A DNA stretch of 29,679 nucleotides, from positions 1-29,679 of the forward strand of contig JAQERH010000036.1 in the NCBI GenBank assembly GCA_027698105.1, given 5' to 3'. The position numbers and the translations under genes are program-made. Source of the stretch: Lachnospiraceae bacterium AM93-12TA. GTDB lineage: Bacteria > Bacillota > Clostridia > Lachnospirales > Lachnospiraceae. Each line of letters starts with the position of its first letter. Within the stretch, counting starts at the first letter, position 1. The notes beneath the pieces were generated by a model, which did no database searches, was not told the DNA's origin, and saw only the letters and a list, made by a program, of their open reading frames with translations. Below are positions 1 through 28,772 of the stretch, one piece after another.

Positions 1-49
1 CATGCGGCTGTTAACCGCAGTGTCGTTGGTTCGAGTCCAACAGGGGGAG
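1..49 (+). tRNA. tRNA-Asn (GTT), 5' part outside window
   Basis: The 3' part of a tRNA: anticodon arm with GTT in a 7-base loop at about 9-15, then a T arm (25-41, GTTGG/CCAAC stem with TTCGAGT loop) and the acceptor 3' strand AGGGGGA with discriminator G at 49. The D arm and 5' acceptor lie before the window. No CCA is encoded. Confidence 0.9.
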
Positions 50-143
50 TTTTGATACCTATACATGATTCGAAGTAGATTTTGCATGAGCTGATTTACG
101 AGATGATAGGAGCGAAACAGTGGAAACTGTGGAGTTAAATTTT

Positions 144-215
144 GGCCCCATGGTCAAGCGGTTAAGACATCGCCCTTTCACGGCGGTAACACGAGTTCGA
201 ATCTCGTTGGGGTCA
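144..215 (+). tRNA. tRNA-Glu (TTC)
   Basis: Complete cloverleaf. The acceptor GGCCCCA (144-150) pairs with TGGGGTC (208-214, one G-T pair), discriminator A215. Anticodon TTC is at 177-179 and the T arm at 191-207 has the TTCGAAT loop. CCA is not encoded. It is second in the tRNA operon, about 94 bases after tRNA-Asn; that gap contains only a small ACAGT/ACTGT hairpin near 117-130. Confidence 0.97.
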
Positions 216-223
216 TTTAATAT

Positions 224-296
224 GCCGATGTGGCTCAATTGGCAGAGCAGCTGATTTGTAATCAGCAGGTTATCGGTTCGAGTCCGATCATCGGCT
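224..296 (+). tRNA. tRNA-Thr (TGT)
   Basis: Acceptor GCCGATG (224-230) pairs perfectly with CATCGGC (289-295), discriminator T296. The anticodon stem GCTGA/TCAGC encloses a loop with TGT at 257-259. The T arm is at 272-288. It lies 8 bases after tRNA-Glu, so both are processed from one transcript. No CCA encoded. Confidence 0.97.
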
Positions 297-305
297 TATT
301 TATCT

Positions 306-379
306 GGACCTTTAGCTCAGTTGGTTAGAGCAACCGGCTCATAACCGGTCGGTCCTGGGTTCGAGTCCCCGAAGGTCCA
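306..379 (+). tRNA. tRNA with CAT anticodon (elongator Met or Ile2)
   Basis: Acceptor GGACCTT (306-312) pairs with AAGGTCC (372-378), discriminator A379. The anticodon CAT is at 340-342. The anticodon stem is ACCGG/CCGGT, without the three G-C pairs of an initiator tRNA, and the first acceptor pair is G-C, so it is not the initiator. Whether it is elongator Met or the lysidine-modified Ile2 cannot be settled by eye. The T stem has one mismatch (356/370). Confidence 0.93.
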
Positions 380-428
380 CTAACACTGACTAAAGAAAAT
401 AATTGATACAAAATTAAGTTTTAATTTT

Positions 429-502
429 GGCCCGGTGGCTCAGTTGGTTAGAGCGCCGCCCTGTCACGGCGGAGGTCGTGGGTTCGAGTCCCATCCGGGT
501 CG
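429..502 (+). tRNA. tRNA-Asp (GTC)
   Basis: Acceptor GGCCCGG (429-435) pairs with CCGGGTC (495-501, one G-T), discriminator G502. Anticodon GTC at 463-465; T arm 478-494. An AT-rich stretch of 49 bases separates it from the previous tRNA. No CCA encoded. Confidence 0.97.
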
Positions 503-529
503 TTTGGCGAAAGCCATCTATATTTATCT

Positions 530-602
530 GGGGTCTTAGCTCAGCTGGGAGAGCATCTGCCTTACAAGCAGAGGGTCATAGGTTCGAGCCCTATAGGCCC
601 CA
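530..602 (+). tRNA. tRNA-Val (TAC)
   Basis: Acceptor GGGGTCT (530-536) pairs with AGGCCCC (595-601), discriminator A602. Anticodon TAC at 563-565 in a TCTGC/GCAGA stem; T arm 578-594. No CCA encoded. Confidence 0.97.
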
Positions 603-631
603 TTTATCTGTCTAAAGCAGATACAACAAAA

Positions 632-717
632 GCCGCAGTGGCGGAACTGGCAGACGCACAGGACTTAAAATCCTGCGAGGGTTAAACTTCGTACCGGTTC
701 GATTCCGGTCTGCGGCA
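632..717 (+). tRNA. tRNA-Leu (TAA)
   Basis: 86-base class II tRNA. Acceptor GCCGCAG (632-638) pairs with CTGCGGC (710-716), discriminator A717. Anticodon TAA at 666-668 and a long variable arm between 676 and about 693. It is the last tRNA of the operon, directly before the terminator. No CCA encoded. Confidence 0.97.
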
Positions 718-17489: not shown

Positions 17490-18269
17490 ATGAGATTTTT
17501 TATGAAAAAAAAGAGCGCGTCCAGATATGAAGCAGGGGAGCTTTTATTCTGCCGGGAAGCCCTGGGGAGACAGGCGATTGACCGGATCTCCGATTTGATC
17601 AGGCTTCCGGTACAAAGGGAGGAAAATACAGTCCTGTTACGGCAGCAGGGAATAGAGTTTTCCTTTGCCGCTTTTGGCACAGAGGACGAAGGAGAGGCTC
17701 AGGTTTACGCCAGACAGGAGTTAAGCGGCGTACATGGATACCTGCACAGTCTGGATACCGTTTATGGAGATGTGAAACGCCATCTTCTTTATACGATAGG
17801 AAGGTTCAGAAGTGTTGTGCGGGTTCATTATTCCTTTGAACAGAAAAATGAGAGGGCAGACAGGGAGAAAATTCTTCTGGCAGAGAACCTGATCAATGAG
17901 ATTCTTAAGGAACTTCAGGGTATCCGCACGAAGAGGGGCGGAGCATTGGCAGGGCCGGACGGCAGGATCATTCTTGATGAAAGCGGAAACAGCCAGGTGA
18001 AATCTTATCTGCCGCCTCTGGATGAGAGAAAGGACTCAGCGGATCCAGATGGGAAAACCCCAATGAGGGAGGCGCTGGAGCGACGCAGAAAAAGTGTGAT
18101 GCAGCTGAGAAGAAGGCAGATTTACACCCCTCTCGCCCTGCCTGTCATAGAGACGGAAAGAGAGGCAGAAAAAAGAACAAAACGGCAGATCTGCGGAAGA
18201 GCCGCCGCTCTTTTAGCAGTGTCCCTCTATTCAGAATGTCTTCTGGGGGGAAGGAATGAAACCGTCTGA
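17490..18269 (+). CDS. DUF4272 protein, N-terminal piece (frame broken)
   Basis: 259 residues. The segment QVYARQELSGVHGYLHSLD (71-89) and the late stretch IYTPLALPVIETEREAEKR... AALLAVSLYSECLLGG (about 210-255) look like the first two thirds of a DUF4272 (PF14094) protein. The remainder of that family continues in the next frame from 18256. The break falls at a run of six G (18245-18250): reading through five G's would give ...SECLLGEGMKPSEAG... without a stop. Either this is a natural +1 frameshift, a real mutation or a sequencing error, or two coupled genes. AGGAGG at 17479-17484 is 5 bases before the ATG. Function of the family is unknown. Confidence 0.6.
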   Translation: MRFFMKKKSASRYEAGELLFCREALGRQAIDRISDLIRLPVQREENTVLLRQQGIEFSFAAFGTEDEGEAQVYARQELSGVHGYLHSLDTVYGDVKRHLLYTIGRFRSVVRVHYSFEQKNERADREKILLAENLINEILKELQGIRTKRGGALAGPDGRIILDESGNSQVKSYLPPLDERKDSADPDGKTPMREALERRRKSVMQLRRRQIYTPLALPVIETEREAEKRTKRQICGRAAALLAVSLYSECLLGGRNETV

Positions 18270-18759
18270 AGCCGGAGCATTTATCAGGGATACAGTAAAG
18301 CAGTTCCGGGCGGAGGAATTTTTTTCACCGTCTGAAAAAGCCTATCTGAAGAGCAGGCAGCCGGATGAAAACACGCAGATCCAGTTTTCCTGGCAGTATG
18401 AAAACCTGTATGTGATGGAGTGGGCGCTGGGATTATTTGAAACACTGGACTGGCCGGAAAAAATCTGCAGCGTGGGGGACTGTGTGACGAAAATCAGAGA
18501 GTTCCGCTCTCTGGATGAACTGGTGGGCCAGACAAAGCTTCGCCCAAAACGGGAACTTTTAGATGTGGCAGATTTGTATTACCGCCTTCACTGGGCGTGC
18601 CGGGATGCAGCAGTCAATGGATATCCTTTTCCGGAAGCGGTGCTCTTTGAGGCTGCTGCTGAGCGCCGCCGTGGCCTGTTCTGGGCTGCAGGCTGCCGCA
18701 GTGCCGAGGGAGAAAGATTGACAGGAGACGGCTGGGATCAGACAGATGTAACAACTTGA
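18256..18759 (+). CDS. DUF4272 protein, C-terminal piece
   Basis: 167 residues overlapping the previous frame by 14 bases, one frame forward. It carries the family core FSPSEKAYL (24-32) and IQFSWQYENLYVMEWALGLFE (about 42-62), which marks DUF4272. The ATG at 18256 has GGGGGGAAGG immediately upstream, which could allow reinitiation. The final 20 residues are unlike the family and end just 3 bases into the next promoter region. Probably not independent of the preceding frame. Confidence 0.6.
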   Translation: MKPSEAGAFIRDTVKQFRAEEFFSPSEKAYLKSRQPDENTQIQFSWQYENLYVMEWALGLFETLDWPEKICSVGDCVTKIREFRSLDELVGQTKLRPKRELLDVADLYYRLHWACRDAAVNGYPFPEAVLFEAAAERRRGLFWAAGCRSAEGERLTGDGWDQTDVTT

Positions 18760-18821: not shown

Positions 18822-18953
18822 CAATGCAGAACGTCGAATGCCGTCAGCCGCGGCAGCGGGAGAACCAATCTTTTGGGGTGAATTGGCAGAGCCTATGCCA
18901 TAGGAAACCTTCTTTTCCGAATCCGTCAGCTAATCTCGCAGACATTGGAAGGA
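18822..18953 (+). ncRNA. ydaO-yuaA (c-di-AMP) riboswitch aptamer
   Basis: The leader shows the conserved blocks of this class in order: GAACCAA ... TTGGGGTGAATT (18862-18884), a variable hairpin with GGCA/TGCC (18885-18899), GGAAACC, and CCGAATCCGTCAGCTAATCT (18917-18936), ending CGCAGACATTGGAAGGA. The 5' AACGTCG region can pair with the closing CAGACATT as the basal helix. ydaO RNAs bind cyclic di-AMP and switch genes off, typically K+ and osmolyte transporters and cell-wall genes. The downstream genes encode an osmolyte importer, which fits. No protein gene is needed to explain the 350-base gap. Confidence 0.92.
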
Positions 18954-19016
18954 TTTGCGTATTGGCAGTACGTGCTGTTTCAGAGCGTTTTAATGCCTAT
19001 TTCAGAAAAACCTTTC

Positions 19017-23109: not shown

Positions 23110-24198
23110 ATGAGCCAGAGAGAGGAAAAGGAGATTCAGAGCACGGGAGGAGCAGAAAGTCAGACTCCCCATAAGAGGAGAGTCCGCTACAAGGGAACCC
23201 ATCCCAGAAGCTATAAGGAAAAATACAAGGAATTAAATCCGGAAAAATATAAGGATACAATAGAGCATGTGATTCAGAAGGGAGGAACTCCGGCGGGAAT
23301 GCACATTTCTATCTGTGTCAATGAGATCCTGGATTTCTTTGATATCCAGCCGGGACAGATCGGGGTGGACGCTACTCTGGGATATGGGGGACATACCAGA
23401 AGAATGCTGGAAAAGCTCCAGGGGAACGGCCATATCTATGGCCTGGATGTGGATCCGATTGAGTCAGAGAAGACAAAAAAACGTCTTCTGGACGCTGGGT
23501 ATGGGCCTGATATTCTTACGGTACGTCTGATGAATTTTGCAGAGCTTGATCAGCTGGCAGAGGAAAAGGGGCCGTTTGACTTTATTCTGGCAGATTTAGG
23601 CGTATCCTCCATGCAGATAGACAATCCAGAGCGCGGGTTTACCTATAAATATGAAGGGCCTCTGGATCTGCGTCTGAATCCGGAGAAGGGCGCAACAGCA
23701 GCAGAAAGGCTTCGGGAGATTGACAGAGAGGAGTTTTGCGGAATGATGATAGAAAATTCCGATGAGCCTTATGCTGAGGAAATCTCCCAGGAGGTATTTA
23801 ACCGGCTTCGCAGAGGGCAGGCGATTGAGACTACGACGCAGCTGAAGGATGCCATTGAGACGGCGCTGTCCTTTATTCCGGAGAAGGAGAGAAAAGAGGC
23901 TGTAAAGAAATCATGCGCCAGAGTTTTCCAGGCTCTTCGCATTGACGTAAACAGCGAATTTGAGGTACTGTACGCTTTTCTGGAAAAGCTGCCCGGCGCT
24001 TTAAAGGAAGGGGGCAAAGCGGCGATTCTGACGTTCCACTCCGGGGAGGACAGAATGGTGAAGCGTTCCTTTAAGCAGCTGAAAAAACAGGGAGTTTACC
24101 AGGAAATTTCAGAGGAGGTAATCCGCCCGTCTGCAGAAGAGTGCGCGAGAAACAGCAGAGCCAGATCCACTAAAATGCGATGGGCAGTAAAGGCTTAA
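23110..24198 (+). CDS. RsmH-like SAM methyltransferase with N-terminal extension (paralog)
   Basis: 362 residues, against about 310 for RsmH/MraW, which N4-methylates C1402 of 16S rRNA. The SAM site is DATLGYGGHT (87-96). ADLGVSSMQID (161-171) and RGFTYKYEGPLDLRLN (175-190) replace the usual DLGVSSPQLD and LDMRM motifs, and LTFHSGEDRMVK (near 309-320) replaces the usual SFHSLEDR. The first 60 residues are an additional basic part with VRYKGTHPRSYKEKYKELNP (25-44). The gene has its own promoter and is not followed by ftsL, pbp or mra genes, so it is not the division-cluster copy. Its target may be rRNA or another RNA. AAGGAG precedes the ATG. Confidence 0.85.
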   Translation: MSQREEKEIQSTGGAESQTPHKRRVRYKGTHPRSYKEKYKELNPEKYKDTIEHVIQKGGTPAGMHISICVNEILDFFDIQPGQIGVDATLGYGGHTRRMLEKLQGNGHIYGLDVDPIESEKTKKRLLDAGYGPDILTVRLMNFAELDQLAEEKGPFDFILADLGVSSMQIDNPERGFTYKYEGPLDLRLNPEKGATAAERLREIDREEFCGMMIENSDEPYAEEISQEVFNRLRRGQAIETTTQLKDAIETALSFIPEKERKEAVKKSCARVFQALRIDVNSEFEVLYAFLEKLPGALKEGGKAAILTFHSGEDRMVKRSFKQLKKQGVYQEISEEVIRPSAEECARNSRARSTKMRWAVKA

Positions 24199-24269
24199 CA
24201 AGTGAAAACGCAGGACTGAACGACAAGGCCTGAAAAAATGGACGCCGCGCTCATAATCTGCCTGTCCCG

Positions 24270-24299
24270 GCATATATATGAAGTATATGATGATAGTGT
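24270..24299 (+). promoter_or_regulatory. Possible sigma-E-like promoter of spoIIIA
   Basis: GCATATA (24270-24276) and GATAGTGT (24292-24299) stand about 15 bases apart, loosely like mother-cell sigma-E elements (ATA ... CATA--T). In Bacillus the spoIIIA operon is under sigma-E. The match is weak. Confidence 0.25.
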
Positions 24300-24345: not shown

Positions 24346-25338
24346 ATGGCAGATATAAGGACAGGACAGGCAGAGCTGTTACAGATATTTCCTCCTCAGC
24401 TCAGAGAGATACTGTCGAAAGCTGTTTCTGACTGGGAAGAAGTACAGGAACTGAGATTGAGAAGCGGAAAGCCGTTGTTTATTACTGTAAAAGGTCAGGA
24501 ATATGCAGTAGGAAAGGGCGGAAACCTGTCCGTTTCTTCGGATGCAGAGCGGATGAAGAGAGATGGGCAAATCTGCATCGTATCCCAGAGAGAGATTGAG
24601 CAGACCGTTGAGTGCGCGGTCCGCCATTCCCTGTATGCCTTTGAGGAGCAGATTCGCCAGGGATTTCTCACTGTGGCCGGAGGCCACAGAATCGGAGTCA
24701 TAGGGAGAGCTGTGTCGGAGCACAGAGAAATTCGGACGATCAAGCCGATTACAGGGCTGAATATCCGCATTGCCCACGAGAAAAAGGGATGCGCTGACAG
24801 AATTATGCGCTTTCTGGCAGATGCAGGGCAGAAGGAATGGCTCTCTACCCTTTTAGTATCTCCTCCCTGCTGTGGAAAAACGACTCTTTTGAGGGATATT
24901 GTGAGGAACATTTCAAATGGCTGTGGATATATGGAGGGGAGAACGGTAGGAATTGTGGATGAGCGATCAGAAATCGCAGCCTGCTTTCAGGGGATTCCCC
25001 AGAATGATGTGGGAATACGAAGCGATGTACTGGATGGCTGCCCCAAGGCAGAGGGGATGATGATGCTGATCCGGGCCATGTCTCCCAGAGTTGTAGCGGC
25101 AGATGAAATAGGTGGAAAAGGTGATTTAGAAGCCTTACAGTATGCATCAGGCTGCGGATGCAGCCTGATTGCCACAGCCCATGGAGCTTCCATGGAGGAT
25201 CTTGCCTTAAAACCCATGTTTCGTGAGCTGTTTCGAGAGAGGATCTTTTGCCGCTTTGTATTTTTGAGCGGCAGAAAGGGACCTGGCACAGTAGAACGGA
25301 TTTCAGACCATAAAGGATGTGAGATCTATGTTCCTTAA
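24346..25338 (+). CDS. spoIIIAA: Stage III sporulation protein AA (ATPase)
   Basis: A 330-residue ATPase related to secretion ATPases that powers the SpoIIIA-SpoIIQ channel between mother cell and forespore. Walker A is SPPCCGKTTLLRD (172-184), followed by GIVDERSEIAA (near 204-214) and the Walker-B-type VVAADEIGG. The N-terminal third has AGGHRIGVIGRAV (111-123), a family hallmark. The length is close to the usual 305-330. GAGGGG lies before the ATG. It overlaps spoIIIAB by 11 bases. Confidence 0.94.
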   Translation: MADIRTGQAELLQIFPPQLREILSKAVSDWEEVQELRLRSGKPLFITVKGQEYAVGKGGNLSVSSDAERMKRDGQICIVSQREIEQTVECAVRHSLYAFEEQIRQGFLTVAGGHRIGVIGRAVSEHREIRTIKPITGLNIRIAHEKKGCADRIMRFLADAGQKEWLSTLLVSPPCCGKTTLLRDIVRNISNGCGYMEGRTVGIVDERSEIAACFQGIPQNDVGIRSDVLDGCPKAEGMMMLIRAMSPRVVAADEIGGKGDLEALQYASGCGCSLIATAHGASMEDLALKPMFRELFRERIFCRFVFLSGRKGPGTVERISDHKGCEIYVP

Positions 25339-25849
25339 ACTGCTGGGAGCTGTATTTGTCATTATTTCCTGCAGCAAAATAGGCGCAGATATGGCGGCAA
25401 GACTTTCCGTACGGCGGGGAATTTTGAAAAAAATCAAAGTTATGGTAATTCATCTGCGGGGAGAAATTCTCTATGGGAACGCTCCGCTCTATGAGGGGTT
25501 CCAGAAGGCAGGAAAGCGGGCCGGAGGACCGGAGGGACTGCTGTTTGAAACAGTCGCAGAACGAGTCTTAAAAGGCCTGGGAGAAGATTTTTTTACTATC
25601 TGGCAGGAAGAGGCAGGCGCTTATGCGGCCCGGACTCCGCTGTCAGGAGAGGAAGGAGAGCAGCTGCTGGCATTTGGAGAGCATTTAGGATATCTGGACC
25701 GGGAAATGCAGGAAAGGACCCTGGCTTTGTATCTGGAAGAGCTGGAGCAGGAGATAGAAGGACTGAATCAGGAAATTTCCCAGAAAAGCCGCCTTTATAC
25801 CAGCGCCGGAGTTCTGGCAGGACTGTTTCTGACTGTAATATTAATCTGA
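25328..25849 (+). CDS. spoIIIAB: Stage III sporulation protein AB
   Basis: A 173-residue membrane protein with an N-terminal helix (about 3-18) and a C-terminal helix (about 155-173) around a helical soluble core; AB is related to GspF-type platform proteins of secretion systems. The final SQKSRLYTSAGVLAGLFLTVILI-type tail is characteristic. The ATG at 25328 is preferred, because AAAGGA is 11 bases upstream, over a GTG at 25319 that is too close to it. It overlaps spoIIIAA. Confidence 0.92.
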   Translation: MFLKLLGAVFVIISCSKIGADMAARLSVRRGILKKIKVMVIHLRGEILYGNAPLYEGFQKAGKRAGGPEGLLFETVAERVLKGLGEDFFTIWQEEAGAYAARTPLSGEEGEQLLAFGEHLGYLDREMQERTLALYLEELEQEIEGLNQEISQKSRLYTSAGVLAGLFLTVILI

Positions 25850-25915
25850 ACTGCAAAATGTTCATGCGGACAGAAGGAAGAGAACACACAAAACAGAGGT
25901 TAGGGAGGGAAAGGG

Positions 25916-26110
25916 ATGGGAGTCAGCCTGATATTTCGGATTGCAGCGGTGGGGATTCTGGTATCTGTTATCTGCCAGGTGTTAAAACACAGCGGCAGAG
26001 AGGAGCAGGCATTCCTGACAAGCCTGGCAGGTCTGGTTTTAGTGCTGTTCTGGATGGTGCCGTATATTTATGAGCTGTTTGAAACCATGAAGGAGCTGTT
26101 TGCTCTTTAA
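25916..26110 (+). CDS. spoIIIAC: Stage III sporulation protein AC
   Basis: 64 residues with two transmembrane helices (about 4-22 and 34-54), exactly the size and layout of SpoIIIAC. AGGGAGGG stands before the ATG. In sporulating Firmicutes the next gene is spoIIIAD, then AE-AH; here the following gene is unrelated. Confidence 0.93.
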   Translation: MGVSLIFRIAAVGILVSVICQVLKHSGREEQAFLTSLAGLVLVLFWMVPYIYELFETMKELFAL

Positions 26111-26142
26111 TATTTACCAGAAGAGACGGGAGGGAAAAGCTG

Positions 26143-26601
26143 ATGACAGGGGAGGAGCTTAAAAAGAGAGGATTTATTTATTTTGAGGGCATCCGGGAAG
26201 GGCTTGAAACATTTGAACACCAGATAGCAGTGATGGATCGGAATCAGGCCTTCGCCCATTTTTCAGAGCTGAGAGAAGCATATGGAGCAGATAACAGCTT
26301 TCTTGATTTTTACCTGTTCGCCTTAAAAGAGGAAGAGCGAAAAAAGGCCGAGTCCGTCCTGACAGAAGACGAGACAGAGGCCCTGAAAATCTGGGAGAAA
26401 AAAGCAGGATTTCCTAAGGGGGATCAGGTGATTTTTCCCATGGATGATGTTCTTTTAAAGGCAGCGGCTGTTCTCAATGAAACAGGAATGCTTTTTTCCA
26501 CCATGTATTTTGCCAAAGCAGATGAAAAACAGTCGGAAAAGGAGACAAAGGCAGAGACCTGGTGGGGAAATTTTAACGGAGAATATATCAGATTTTATTA
26601 G
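26143..26601 (+). CDS. Uncharacterised soluble protein in the spoIIIAD position
   Basis: 152 residues, not recognised. It is hydrophilic, helical and acidic, with no membrane segment, so it cannot be SpoIIIAD (two to three helices, about 130 residues). The central stretch AHFSELREAYGADNSFLDFYLFALKEEER (quoted in part, 38-66) and PMDDVLLKAAAVLNETGMLF (about 106-125) may be conserved in relatives. GGGAGGG precedes the ATG 32 bases after spoIIIAC, so it looks cotranscribed with AA-AC. The coding region ends 39 bases before the convergent next gene. An imperfect GC-rich hairpin follows at about 26602-26624. Confidence 0.6.
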   Translation: MTGEELKKRGFIYFEGIREGLETFEHQIAVMDRNQAFAHFSELREAYGADNSFLDFYLFALKEEERKKAESVLTEDETEALKIWEKKAGFPKGDQVIFPMDDVLLKAAAVLNETGMLFSTMYFAKADEKQSEKETKAETWWGNFNGEYIRFY

Positions 26602-26640: not shown

Positions 26641-27741
26641 TTATAAAAGACAAAATGAGGCATCATGAAATTGCCGTACATTGAAAACAATCCGCCACTC
26701 TACAGCATTTTGAACCGGTTCAAAATGTAGAGCGGAACAGGCAGTGTGCGCTGGATGCTCCCTTCCCCAGATGATGGAGGAAGGCCCGTCTGCTCCGCCG
26801 ATGATACCAATGCAACAGGCATTGCAGGCAAGAGGATGGAAGGAATCATACTCTTCCTCGATTTTCTTAGGCTTATCACTTTCAGCACAGTCAAAAATTG
26901 TAATGGGATCTGTCGGTTCAGGAAAAATGGTATAACTCATGACGGTACAGTGCCTGGGATAGAGAAAGCGGGCAAAAGCGCCGGAGTGGAATGTGCTTTC
27001 AGGGAGTGTCTGCGTTTCCAGATCCTGCACAGTCAGAGTATGGGACATCTGGCTGACCGGGTTAAAAAAGGTAAAGGAATCTCCCGGTGCATGGACAGTA
27101 AAATGAGGTCCTGGAATCCGTTCCCTCTGCTGCTTCATGGTAAGGGAAAGAGTCTTGATTTCAGGACGGCGGCCGCCTGCCCAGGAAAAGGCATTTCTGC
27201 AGATTACCCAGCCAAAGGACGGATCCAGTCCATAGTAGTCAGTGATCCATTCTGCCTCTGGATCCTGGTGGATTTTGCCTGGAAGACAGGGATTAAAGCA
27301 GATAGAACAGCCGTGGGCACAGGAAAGGTTTTTTCCATTTACCTGGATATCAGGTGAAAAATGCAGGCACAGAGGATTTTCCAGTTCCAGCTGCATCTGC
27401 TGTTCTGGCGTAAAGCAGTCACAGGAATCGTGATCCGGGTTTAGATTCCATTTTTCCATAAAGCGCCGGATCGATTCTGCGCTGACCTGCATACAGAAAT
27501 CAATGACCAGACCTTGTCCGCAGGAATATACCGCAGGAATGATCCAGCGGTATCCGGCCCAGTCAAATGTCTGATTGATTTGGATTTCCTTTCCAGCATG
27601 GTCCCTGCCATGATGTCCCCAGAAGCTGCCGTCAAAATAAACCTTCCATTCCGGGAAAACAGGCTTAGCCGGTCTGTCCATAATTACATCTTGATAATCG
27701 TCGGTATATTTAATTTTGCCGGAATCAAACATGTTATCCAT
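26641..27741 (-). CDS. Cys-rich unknown protein with a GIIGGADGP motif
   Basis: A 366-residue soluble protein I do not recognise as a whole. Residues 141-152 contain four cysteines spaced C-x3-C-x2-C-x3-C (CAHGCSICFNPC), with Cys107, Cys109 and Cys125 before them. A second group is C306-x2-C309-C310, directly before IGIIGGADGPSSIIW (311-325). This last motif closely resembles the GIIGGADGPT segment of the beta subunit of Na+-translocating decarboxylases (OadB/GcdB), which is a membrane protein, whereas this one has no membrane helices. ATG at 27741 is favoured by GAGGT 7 bases upstream; a TTG at 27744 is possible. It is last in a minus-strand operon after the HxlR and acetyltransferase genes. 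Confidence 0.55.
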   Translation of the reverse strand: MDNMFDSGKIKYTDDYQDVIMDRPAKPVFPEWKVYFDGSFWGHHGRDHAGKEIQINQTFDWAGYRWIIPAVYSCGQGLVIDFCMQVSAESIRRFMEKWNLNPDHDSCDCFTPEQQMQLELENPLCLHFSPDIQVNGKNLSCAHGCSICFNPCLPGKIHQDPEAEWITDYYGLDPSFGWVICRNAFSWAGGRRPEIKTLSLTMKQQRERIPGPHFTVHAPGDSFTFFNPVSQMSHTLTVQDLETQTLPESTFHSGAFARFLYPRHCTVMSYTIFPEPTDPITIFDCAESDKPKKIEEEYDSFHPLACNACCIGIIGGADGPSSIIWGREHPAHTACSALHFEPVQNAVEWRIVFNVRQFHDASFCLL

Positions 27742-27762
27742 CAAAGTTACCTCATGAAGAAG

Positions 27763-28356
27763 CTAGAATAAAATATGTTCGGGTGCGATTTTATCATTTT
27801 CTGTAATCGGGCGAATTACTTTACAGGGTACGCCGGCAGCAACTACTCCTGCCGGGATGTCATGTGTTACCACGCTTCCTGCTCCAATGACTGAACCGGC
27901 GCCGATTGTTACTCCGCCACAGATCGCTGCGTTTGCGCCAATCCATACATTTTCTTCTAATGTGATGGGAGCCGAAGTACCGATGCCCTGACTGCGCTGT
28001 TGTGGGTCGACAGAATGCCCCGAACAGGCCAGACATACACCTGGGGCAATGAATGTGCCAGCGCCAATGTTTACTGGAGATGTGTCCAAAATGACACAAT
28101 TATAATTGATCACTACCAGGCCGTGTGTGTGGATATTGAAGCCGTAATCGCAGTGAAAGTCTGGCTCGATCCCCAGCATCGGCGAGCACGTTCCCAGAAG
28201 TTTTTGCAAAATGGAACGACGTTTATCCTGCTCATTCGGAGCTGTCTGGTTATATTCCCAGCAAAGCTGCTTTGCATAATTGCCTGCTTCAGTGGGAGTG
28301 TTTTCATAGCCGCTGGCATAAGAGGCAGGGCGTTTCATAATTTCAAGAGGATTCAT
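27763..28356 (-). CDS. Sugar O-acetyltransferase, hexapeptide-repeat (Maa/LacA type)
   Basis: A 197-residue left-handed beta-helix enzyme that transfers acetyl from acetyl-CoA to a sugar hydroxyl. The N-terminal cap (about 1-55) has the Maa-type helices; the coil region has the hexapeptide rungs VNIGAGTFIAPGVCLAC, then GHSVDPQQRSQGIG (113-126) with the catalytic His and the usual loop Asp, then VWIGANAAICGGVTIGAGSVIG. AAGGAG stands before the ATG. It lies 37 bases downstream of the HxlR gene and 21 bases upstream of the Cys-rich gene, so all three are probably one operon. Confidence 0.92.
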   Translation of the reverse strand: MNPLEIMKRPASYASGYENTPTEAGNYAKQLCWEYNQTAPNEQDKRRSILQKLLGTCSPMLGIEPDFHCDYGFNIHTHGLVVINYNCVILDTSPVNIGAGTFIAPGVCLACSGHSVDPQQRSQGIGTSAPITLEENVWIGANAAICGGVTIGAGSVIGAGSVVTHDIPAGVVAAGVPCKVIRPITENDKIAPEHILF

Positions 28357-28393: not shown

Positions 28394-28729
28394 TTACCTG
28401 GGGCGATTGTTTTCTCCCCAAATACACAGCTGATCCAACACTTTCATAAGTGATTTTCCCCGTTCACTCAAACTGTACTCAACTTTCGGGGGAATCTGGG
28501 GGTATTCTTTGCGCAGAATGAGCTGATCCTTCTCCAGCTCTTTCAGATTTGCTGCAAGAGTTTTATCAGAAATCTTTTTAAGATACCTTCGAAGCTCATT
28601 AAATCTAACCACTTCAAATTCCATCAGACAATATAGTATTACCATTTTATGTTTGCCTGAGATGAGGGACAAGGTGTAGCTGAAACCTGTATCTTCAAAA
28701 TTTGCGTTTTCAATATAAGGTTTGATCAT
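28394..28729 (-). CDS. HxlR-family winged-helix regulator
   Basis: A 111-residue MarR-like regulator of the HxlR/YodB group. It shows the typical core LISGKHKMVILYCLMEFEVVRFNELRRYL (in part, 23-51), KISDKTLAANLKELEKDQLI (recognition helix region) and the wing PPKVEYSLSERGKSL. AGGAGA fits the ATG at 28729; the longer frame to 28759 crosses the regulatory region. It is divergent from a flavin reductase, a usual target arrangement, and probably controls both directions. A Cys near the N-terminus, used for redox sensing by YodB, is not visible here. Confidence 0.9.
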   Translation of the reverse strand: MIKPYIENANFEDTGFSYTLSLISGKHKMVILYCLMEFEVVRFNELRRYLKKISDKTLAANLKELEKDQLILRKEYPQIPPKVEYSLSERGKSLMKVLDQLCIWGENNRPR

Positions 28730-28747
28730 GACACTTTCTCCTAAGAT

Positions 28748-28772
28748 AGTACCTGTCAAAAAAGATGGTACT
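28748..28772. promoter_or_regulatory. Palindrome between hxlR-like gene and flavin reductase (candidate operator)
   Basis: AGTACC (28748-28753) and GGTACT (28767-28772) form an inverted repeat with 13 bases between. The right arm abuts the -35 of the flavin reductase promoter. HxlR/YodB-type operators often contain TAC/GTA half sites. The 124-base region between the divergent genes contains this and the promoter only. Confidence 0.65.

What the first reader, a model, noticed from the sequence alone, without database searches (positions are those of the whole stretch)
24346..26601. spoIIIA operon stops after spoIIIAC
spoIIIAA, AB and AC are intact and in order, but spoIIIAD-AE-AF-AG-AH, which follow in nearly all spore formers, are absent. 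A soluble unknown gene with a good ribosome site takes the spoIIIAD position, then a minus-strand accessory set begins. Possible explanations are loss of sporulation, relocation of AD-AH, or a misassembly at about 26110-26143.
Basis: partly seen in the sequence, partly recalled or inferred. Interest (0 to 1): 0.8.

Follow-up and report, generated by a model that had tools for sequence, protein, structure and literature searches.

The report
Spore operon split across the chromosome
In at least two bacteria related to Clostridium fessum, an eight-gene operon that spore-forming cells use to support the developing spore has been broken after its third gene, and in the one relative with a single-contig genome the other five genes sit intact elsewhere on the chromosome.

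Summary
spoIIIAA, AB and AC are intact at 24346-26110; spoIIIAD does not follow, but a 152-aa soluble orphan (26143-26601) does. No genome is held for the window, so its own AD-AH could not be sought. The nearest relative found (G402, one 3.89-Mb contig) has the same AA-AB-AC-orphan block at 3.59 Mb and an intact AD-AE-AF-AG-AH set at 1.285-1.289 Mb on the other strand. This is a real, inherited split of the operon, not a misassembly and probably not loss of sporulation: SpoIIIAC is 64/64 identical in the two species despite 19 synonymous codon changes. The split is rare: 7 of 8 genus genomes have AB and AE about 1 kb apart, and AD follows AC in 76 of 76 scorable loci (of 80). Each half keeps outer neighbours, suggesting a rearrangement that broke between AC and AD, perhaps an origin-centred inversion; its other end was not found. 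How AD-AH are transcribed is unresolved, and the orphan's role is unknown. A new variant of a known operon, of modest interest.

The parts
23110..24198 (+). second RsmH-type methyltransferase gene (PF01795), directly upstream of spoIIIAA here and in G402; marks the shared upstream flank
   Evidence: Pfam; 83% identity to the G402 neighbour; two PF01795 copies in G402
24248..24278 (+). sigma-E-type promoter-like site of spoIIIAA (-10 box GCATATATA at 24270)
   Evidence: 1 of 500 mononucleotide shuffles as good, but score 8.8 against a training median of 13.7; a block CATAATCTGCCTGTCCC then CATATATAT is shared with G402; consensus match only
24346..25338 (+). spoIIIAA, ATPase of the SpoIIIA-SpoIIQ complex
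25319..25849 (+). spoIIIAB (ORF from GTG 25319; ATG at 25328 is an alternative start)
25916..26110 (+). spoIIIAC, last SpoIIIA gene here; 64/64 residues identical to G402
26111..26142 (.). position of the operon break: in intact relatives spoIIIAD follows AC here
   Evidence: 76 of 76 scorable loci of 80; same break in G402
26143..26601 (+). 152-aa soluble orphan (DFY / LFST / WGN family) in the spoIIIAD position; same place in G402

Best explanation
The spoIIIA operon of this lineage has been cut between spoIIIAC and spoIIIAD by a chromosomal rearrangement in a common ancestor of the window species and G402. Shown: in G402, AA-AB-AC (with the orphan) and AD-AE-AF-AG-AH are two intact clusters on opposite strands, about 0.71 and 0.88 Mb from dnaA on opposite sides if the contig is circular; AA-AC share upstream neighbours with intact genus members and AD-AH keep the downstream neighbours common in the family. 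Inferred: the window species also has AD-AH elsewhere; the break was one end of an inversion roughly centred on the origin; the mother cell still makes all eight proteins, AA-AC from the old sigma-E-type promoter and AD-AH from a promoter not yet identified; the complex then assembles as usual. The orphan was probably brought next to AC by the rearrangement or inserted afterwards, and is now read as a fourth gene of the AA-AC transcript.
For: Same block in G402: AB at C1:3589807-3590328(-), orphan at 3588826-3589266(-), 59% identical. SpoIIIAE at C1:1286045(+), over the Pfam cut-off; AD, AE, AF and AG hit their NCBIfam families, though all four below the curated cut-offs, and AH is 56-67% identical to relatives' AH. 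PF06686 places AC and AD apart in G402, both over its cut-off. dnaA at C1:403462. Upstream genes of the window also lie upstream of the intact operon: recJ, folD, regulator, lipase and rlmH in G003, recJ and folD in G404, folD, regulator and lipase in G405. asp23 lies downstream in 41, nusB in 37, xseA in 38 of 80 loci (67 with 9 kb or more downstream) and all three behind AH in G402. Window and G402 form one clade in the SpoIIIAA tree (98/98). AC is 100% identical with 19 of 64 codons changed synonymously. Among the 120 SpoIIIAE matches listed of 285, 25 clusters are 61-73% identical to G402's, one is 99%, and the others are 52% or less.
Against: The window species' own AD-AH were not seen, as no genome is held. 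The second end of the supposed inversion was not found: hutH and rplY, which flank the two G402 breaks, do not occur together in any of the 8 other genomes searched, so a two-step or cassette move remains possible. No significant sigma-E site lies upstream of AD in G402 (55 of 500 shuffles as good), and the AA sites of the window (8.8) and G402 (5.4) score below the training median of 13.7, while the AD upstream regions of 78 intact loci, where no promoter is expected, reach a median of 4.0 and a 90th percentile of 11.0. The circularity of the G402 contig was assumed.
Confidence: 0.85

Rival explanations
1. AA-AC moved as a three-gene cassette (excision and re-insertion, or duplication and loss) rather than by an inversion with one end at AC|AD.
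For: The second inversion end was not found. A hutU-like gene lies near spoIIIA both in G402, upstream of AD, and in G406, upstream of AA.
Against: AA-AC in the window lie downstream of the recJ-folD-lipase-rlmH row, as the intact AA does in G003 and, in part, G404 and G405, so AA-AC seem not to have left their upstream flank. The hutH orthologues of G406 and G407 are not on the spoIIIA contigs. In G402 the halves lie on opposite sides of dnaA at similar distance and both point away from it.
Confidence: 0.25
2. The window species has lost AD-AH and no longer sporulates; AA-AC are decaying remnants.
For: AD-AH are not in the window, and no genome is held to search.
Against: AC is identical to G402 at 64/64 residues with 19 synonymous codon changes. 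AA, AB and the orphan are open, 64%, 65% and 59% identical, with 58-60% of fourfold sites differing. SpoIIIAE proteins of fitting divergence exist.
Confidence: 0.05
3. The junction at 26110-26143 is an assembly error.
For: None found beyond the oddity itself.
Against: The same AC-orphan junction occurs in G402. AA and orphan clusters share a longest contig of 120,585 bp (P0130, P0001) and of 162,253 bp (P0139, P0004).
Confidence: 0.02
4. The orphan replaces SpoIIIAD functionally in the complex.
For: It takes the AD position in two species.
Against: AD itself is intact in G402. The orphan has no family match and no transmembrane-like segment. Its relatives in 28 of 397 family genomes show no spoIIIA gene in the stretches fetched (about 1.5 kb each side).
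Confidence: 0.03

Closest known systems
Canonical spoIIIA operon (AA-AH contiguous), as in Bacillus subtilis, Clostridioides difficile and the Lachnospiraceae loci examined here
   Same: Same proteins; AA-AB-AC in the same order; sigma-E-type site before AA; in G402 asp23, nusB and xseA behind AH.
   Different: Cut between AC and AD into two distant clusters, with an orphan in the AD position.
Internal promoter before spoIIIAG-AH (B. subtilis; C. difficile); passages seen in PMC4605598 and PMC6934232
   Same: Shows that the 3' part of spoIIIA can have its own promoter.
   Different: That boundary lies before AG inside an intact operon; here the break lies before AD and the halves are physically apart.
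Partial spoIIIA gene sets of Planococcaceae and Lysinibacillus; passages seen in PMC7924749 and PMC3533761
   Same: Departures from the standard eight-gene operon.
   Different: There genes are missing; here all eight are present in G402 but in two places.

Membership tests
Canonical spoIIIA operon | SpoIIIAA, SpoIIIAB and SpoIIIAC encoded in order | tested here: met
   AB is under the NCBIfam cut-off but over the Pfam one
Canonical spoIIIA operon | SpoIIIAD follows SpoIIIAC directly | tested here: not met
   in G402 AD is 2.3 Mb away in contig coordinates
Canonical spoIIIA operon | all eight genes in the genome | not testable with these tools
   no genome held for the window; met in the relative G402
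Canonical spoIIIA operon | sigma-E promoter before AA | tested here: inconclusive
   motif match, 1 of 500 shuffles as good, but below the training median (8.8 against 13.7); transcription not measured
SpoIIIAC/AD family (as identity of the orphan) | match to PF06686 or TIGR02849 and transmembrane helices | tested here: not met
   no family match at E<=0.001; maximum hydropathy 1.16
Functional sporulation (A-Q channel) | heat-resistant spores that depend on these genes | not testable with these tools
   needs a culture

The most novel reading that the evidence does not exclude
The split fixed a new functional division of the A-Q machine: AA-AB-AC plus the orphan form one mother-cell module and AD-AH another, timed by different promoters, and the orphan is a new cytoplasmic accessory or regulator of the SpoIIIAA ATPase side in this lineage.
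Probability: 0.08. Interest if true: 0.65.

Novelty: new variant of a known kind. Interest (0 to 1): 0.36.

Why it matters
spoIIIA is treated as a signature operon of spore formers, and its contiguity has been used to identify its genes (PMC7924749, passages seen). A lineage in which the operon is cut in two, with both halves intact in the one genome where both can be seen, shows that contiguity is not required and warns pipelines that rely on gene context. It also offers a natural test of whether AA-AC and AD-AH need to be made from one transcript, and raises the question of which promoter now drives AD-AH.

Tried and rejected
Scanning genome contigs with the orphan alignment found no relative, so the allowed second scan used SpoIIIAA. 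A plasmid search with the first 25 kb of the window gave, in the 20 rows listed of 78 records, only matches in the tRNA region and one to rsmH.

The inversion test by the partner junction failed: hutH occurs in 3 of 9 genomes and rplY in 5 of 9, and only G402 has both. I rejected the hutU-like gene near spoIIIA in G406 as the ancestral flank: the G402 and G406 regulators there are only 24% identical and the hutH orthologue of G406 is on another contig.

Literature: seven searches listed no paper whose title or abstract start reports a split spoIIIA operon; one search showed 15 of 41 papers and only 12 of 776, the others all their papers. Passages of PMC7924749, PMC3416734, PMC4605598, PMC6934232 and PMC3533761 were seen and report none. 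Only open-licence PMC papers are held, so this does not prove absence in print.

Full report
WHAT IS THERE. The window (no genome held) carries spoIIIAA 24346-25338, spoIIIAB 25319-25849 and spoIIIAC 25916-26110, all open. SpoIIIAA and SpoIIIAC pass their NCBIfam cut-offs; SpoIIIAB passes Pfam's but not NCBIfam's (117.3 against 146.5 bits). The next gene, 26143-26601, is a 152-aa protein with no family match and no transmembrane-like segment. Minus-strand genes follow: 26641-27744 without a family, 27763-28356 hexapeptide acetyltransferase, 28394-28759 HxlR-type; then a plus-strand flavin-reductase-like gene.

IS IT UNUSUAL. In 80 SpoIIIAA loci from named genomes, AC and AD could both be scored in 76, and in all 76 the AD match begins 0-268 nt after AC. 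The other four are two contig ends (L025, L027) and two loci where AC escaped the query (L076, L077). All eight genes were detected in 61 of 80. In a class-wide sample of 79 genomes, 59 had SpoIIIAC/AD matches and 20 had none. Reading the listed rows by eye (the list is cut), 56 of the 59 have AC and AD side by side, two (G420, G452) list too few rows to judge, and one, G402, has them apart. The sample was centred on G402, so G402 is not an independent draw.

THE SAME SPLIT IN A RELATIVE. SpoIIIAB was searched in the 8 genomes held for the genus of G001, which includes Clostridium fessum (G003, from L039). The best match was G402 at 65%; the rest were 44-51%. G402 is the only one of the 8 with the orphan (59%). 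Its AB is at C1:3589807-3590328(-) and its orphan at 3588826-3589266(-), with AC between them. SpoIIIAE lies 0.8-1.1 kb from AB in the other 7 genomes, but in G402 it is at C1:1286045-1287004(+). AD starts at G402:C1:1,285,377, and AE, AF, AG and AH follow in order. AD matches TIGR02849 at 82.4 bits (cut-off 85.6) and PF06686 over its cut-off; AE, AF and AG match their NCBIfam families below cut-off (AE is over Pfam's); AH has no NCBIfam match but is 56-67% identical to relatives' AH. All eight genes are thus present in G402, in two clusters.

NOT AN ASSEMBLY ERROR. The junction recurs in G402's own assembly. In the protein database the clusters for the window-type SpoIIIAA and orphan share a longest contig of 120,585 bp (P0130, P0001), and those of a third lineage share 162,253 bp (P0139, P0004, both named from a Clostridium sp. 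MAG). That these are the same contigs is inferred from the equal lengths.

NOT DECAY, AS FAR AS TESTED. SpoIIIAC is identical over 64 residues between the window and G402 although 19 of 64 codons differ. AA, AB and the orphan are 64%, 65% and 59% identical, with 58-60% of fourfold sites differing. G402 also has SpoIVB and a SpoIIGA-type peptidase (PF03419, 8 of 8 genus genomes). Of the 120 SpoIIIAE matches listed (285 found), 25 clusters are 61-73% identical to G402's; apart from one at 99%, the others are 52% or less. The window species' SpoIIIAE probably lies among the 25, by analogy with its 65% SpoIIIAB; this is inference.

HOW IT AROSE. Gene names without a family call here (recJ, folD, asp23, nusB, xseA, dxs, recN, hutU, rplY, GDSL) are my reading of the sequences; rlmH, lipase, rsmH, dus and the transporter rest, hutH and SpoIVB. 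The window and G402 share, in order, lipase, GDSL, transglutaminase, DUF4272 gene, two transporter genes, dus, second rsmH, AA-AB-AC and orphan, with other genes interspersed in G402. Upstream of the intact operon lie recJ, folD, regulator, lipase and rlmH in G003, recJ and folD in G404, and folD, regulator and lipase in G405; in G001, G406 and G407 none of these was found in the stretch read upstream of AA. Downstream, asp23, nusB, xseA and dxs were found in 41, 37, 38 and 32 of 80 loci (67 with at least 9 kb downstream), and G402 keeps them behind AH with an insert. Each half therefore keeps outer neighbours and the break lies at AC|AD. dnaA of G402 is at 403,462. If the 3,891,914-bp contig is circular, AD-AH lie 0.88 Mb clockwise on + and AA-AC 0.71 Mb anticlockwise on -, both pointing away from dnaA. 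That is what an inversion roughly centred on the origin would leave; a random relocation would give it in a few per cent of cases (my estimate), so the support is modest. The partner junction was not found. In the SpoIIIAA tree the window and G402 form one clade (98/98) outside the six other genus members used (93/93). G403 was not included, the G402 row lacked its N-terminus, and two Enterocloster rows fall in the same larger group, so the place of the split clade relative to them is open.

PROMOTERS. A model trained on the best 50 of 80 AA upstream regions has a strong -10 box TCATATATT. The window's AA has GCATATATA and G402's has TCATATATA (1 and 3 of 500 mononucleotide shuffles as good), inside a block shared by the two species. 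Against this, their scores (8.8 and 5.4) are under the training median (13.7), and the AD upstream regions of 78 intact loci, used as a negative control, score 4.0 at the median and 11.0 at the 90th percentile (maximum 18.5). Upstream of AD in G402 the best site is weak (2.3; 55 of 500). A promoter before AG-AH is known in B. subtilis and C. difficile (passages of PMC4605598 and PMC6934232) but would not serve AD-AF. How AD-AF are transcribed is the main open step.

THE ORPHAN. Relatives occur in 28 of 397 family genomes at E<=0.001 (25-45% identity). None of the 28 loci shows a spoIIIA gene in the stretch fetched, about 1.5 kb on each side, L081 being cut short by its contig end. Conserved motifs are DFY, LFST and W-G-N (17 rows). 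The model is an alpha/beta fold with mean pLDDT 84.9, two of its five versions being poor, and no informative structural match. The gap from AC to the orphan is 32 nt in the window and 164 nt in G402, so tight coupling is not conserved. The simplest reading is a passenger read from the AA promoter.

KNOWN OR NEW. [quoted passage not shown] the seven paper searches, two of them showing only part of their lists, gave none that reports one. I file this as a new variant of a known operon: real, heritable, rare in what was sampled, probably without a change in function.

Noticed in passing
window 17490-18759: A DUF4272-type gene that is one 426-aa frame in G402 is two overlapping frames (259 and 167 aa) in the window: a frameshift or a sequencing error.
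   Followed up: no
window 18822-18959: c-di-AMP riboswitch (RF00379, 88.8 bits) upstream of an osmoprotectant-type ABC transporter.
   Followed up: no
window 1-717 and 1806-1879: tRNA genes: eight Rfam matches in all, seven of them clustered in 1-717 and one of these cut by the window start.
   Followed up: no
window 23110-24198: The rsmH-type gene next to spoIIIAA appears to be a second copy: G402 has another, better-scoring one at C1:1882843; G003, G406 and G407 also have two, G001, G403, G404 and G405 one.
   Followed up: partly
L127 12101-13612 (G402): SpoIVB lies convergent to the orphan in G402; no second SpoIVB-like frame appeared in the fetched AD-AH stretch, which includes a recN-like gene.
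   Followed up: partly
window 26641-27744 (-): 367-aa protein without Pfam or NCBIfam match, in a minus-strand set with an acetyltransferase and an HxlR regulator; no counterpart in the G402 stretches read.
   Followed up: no
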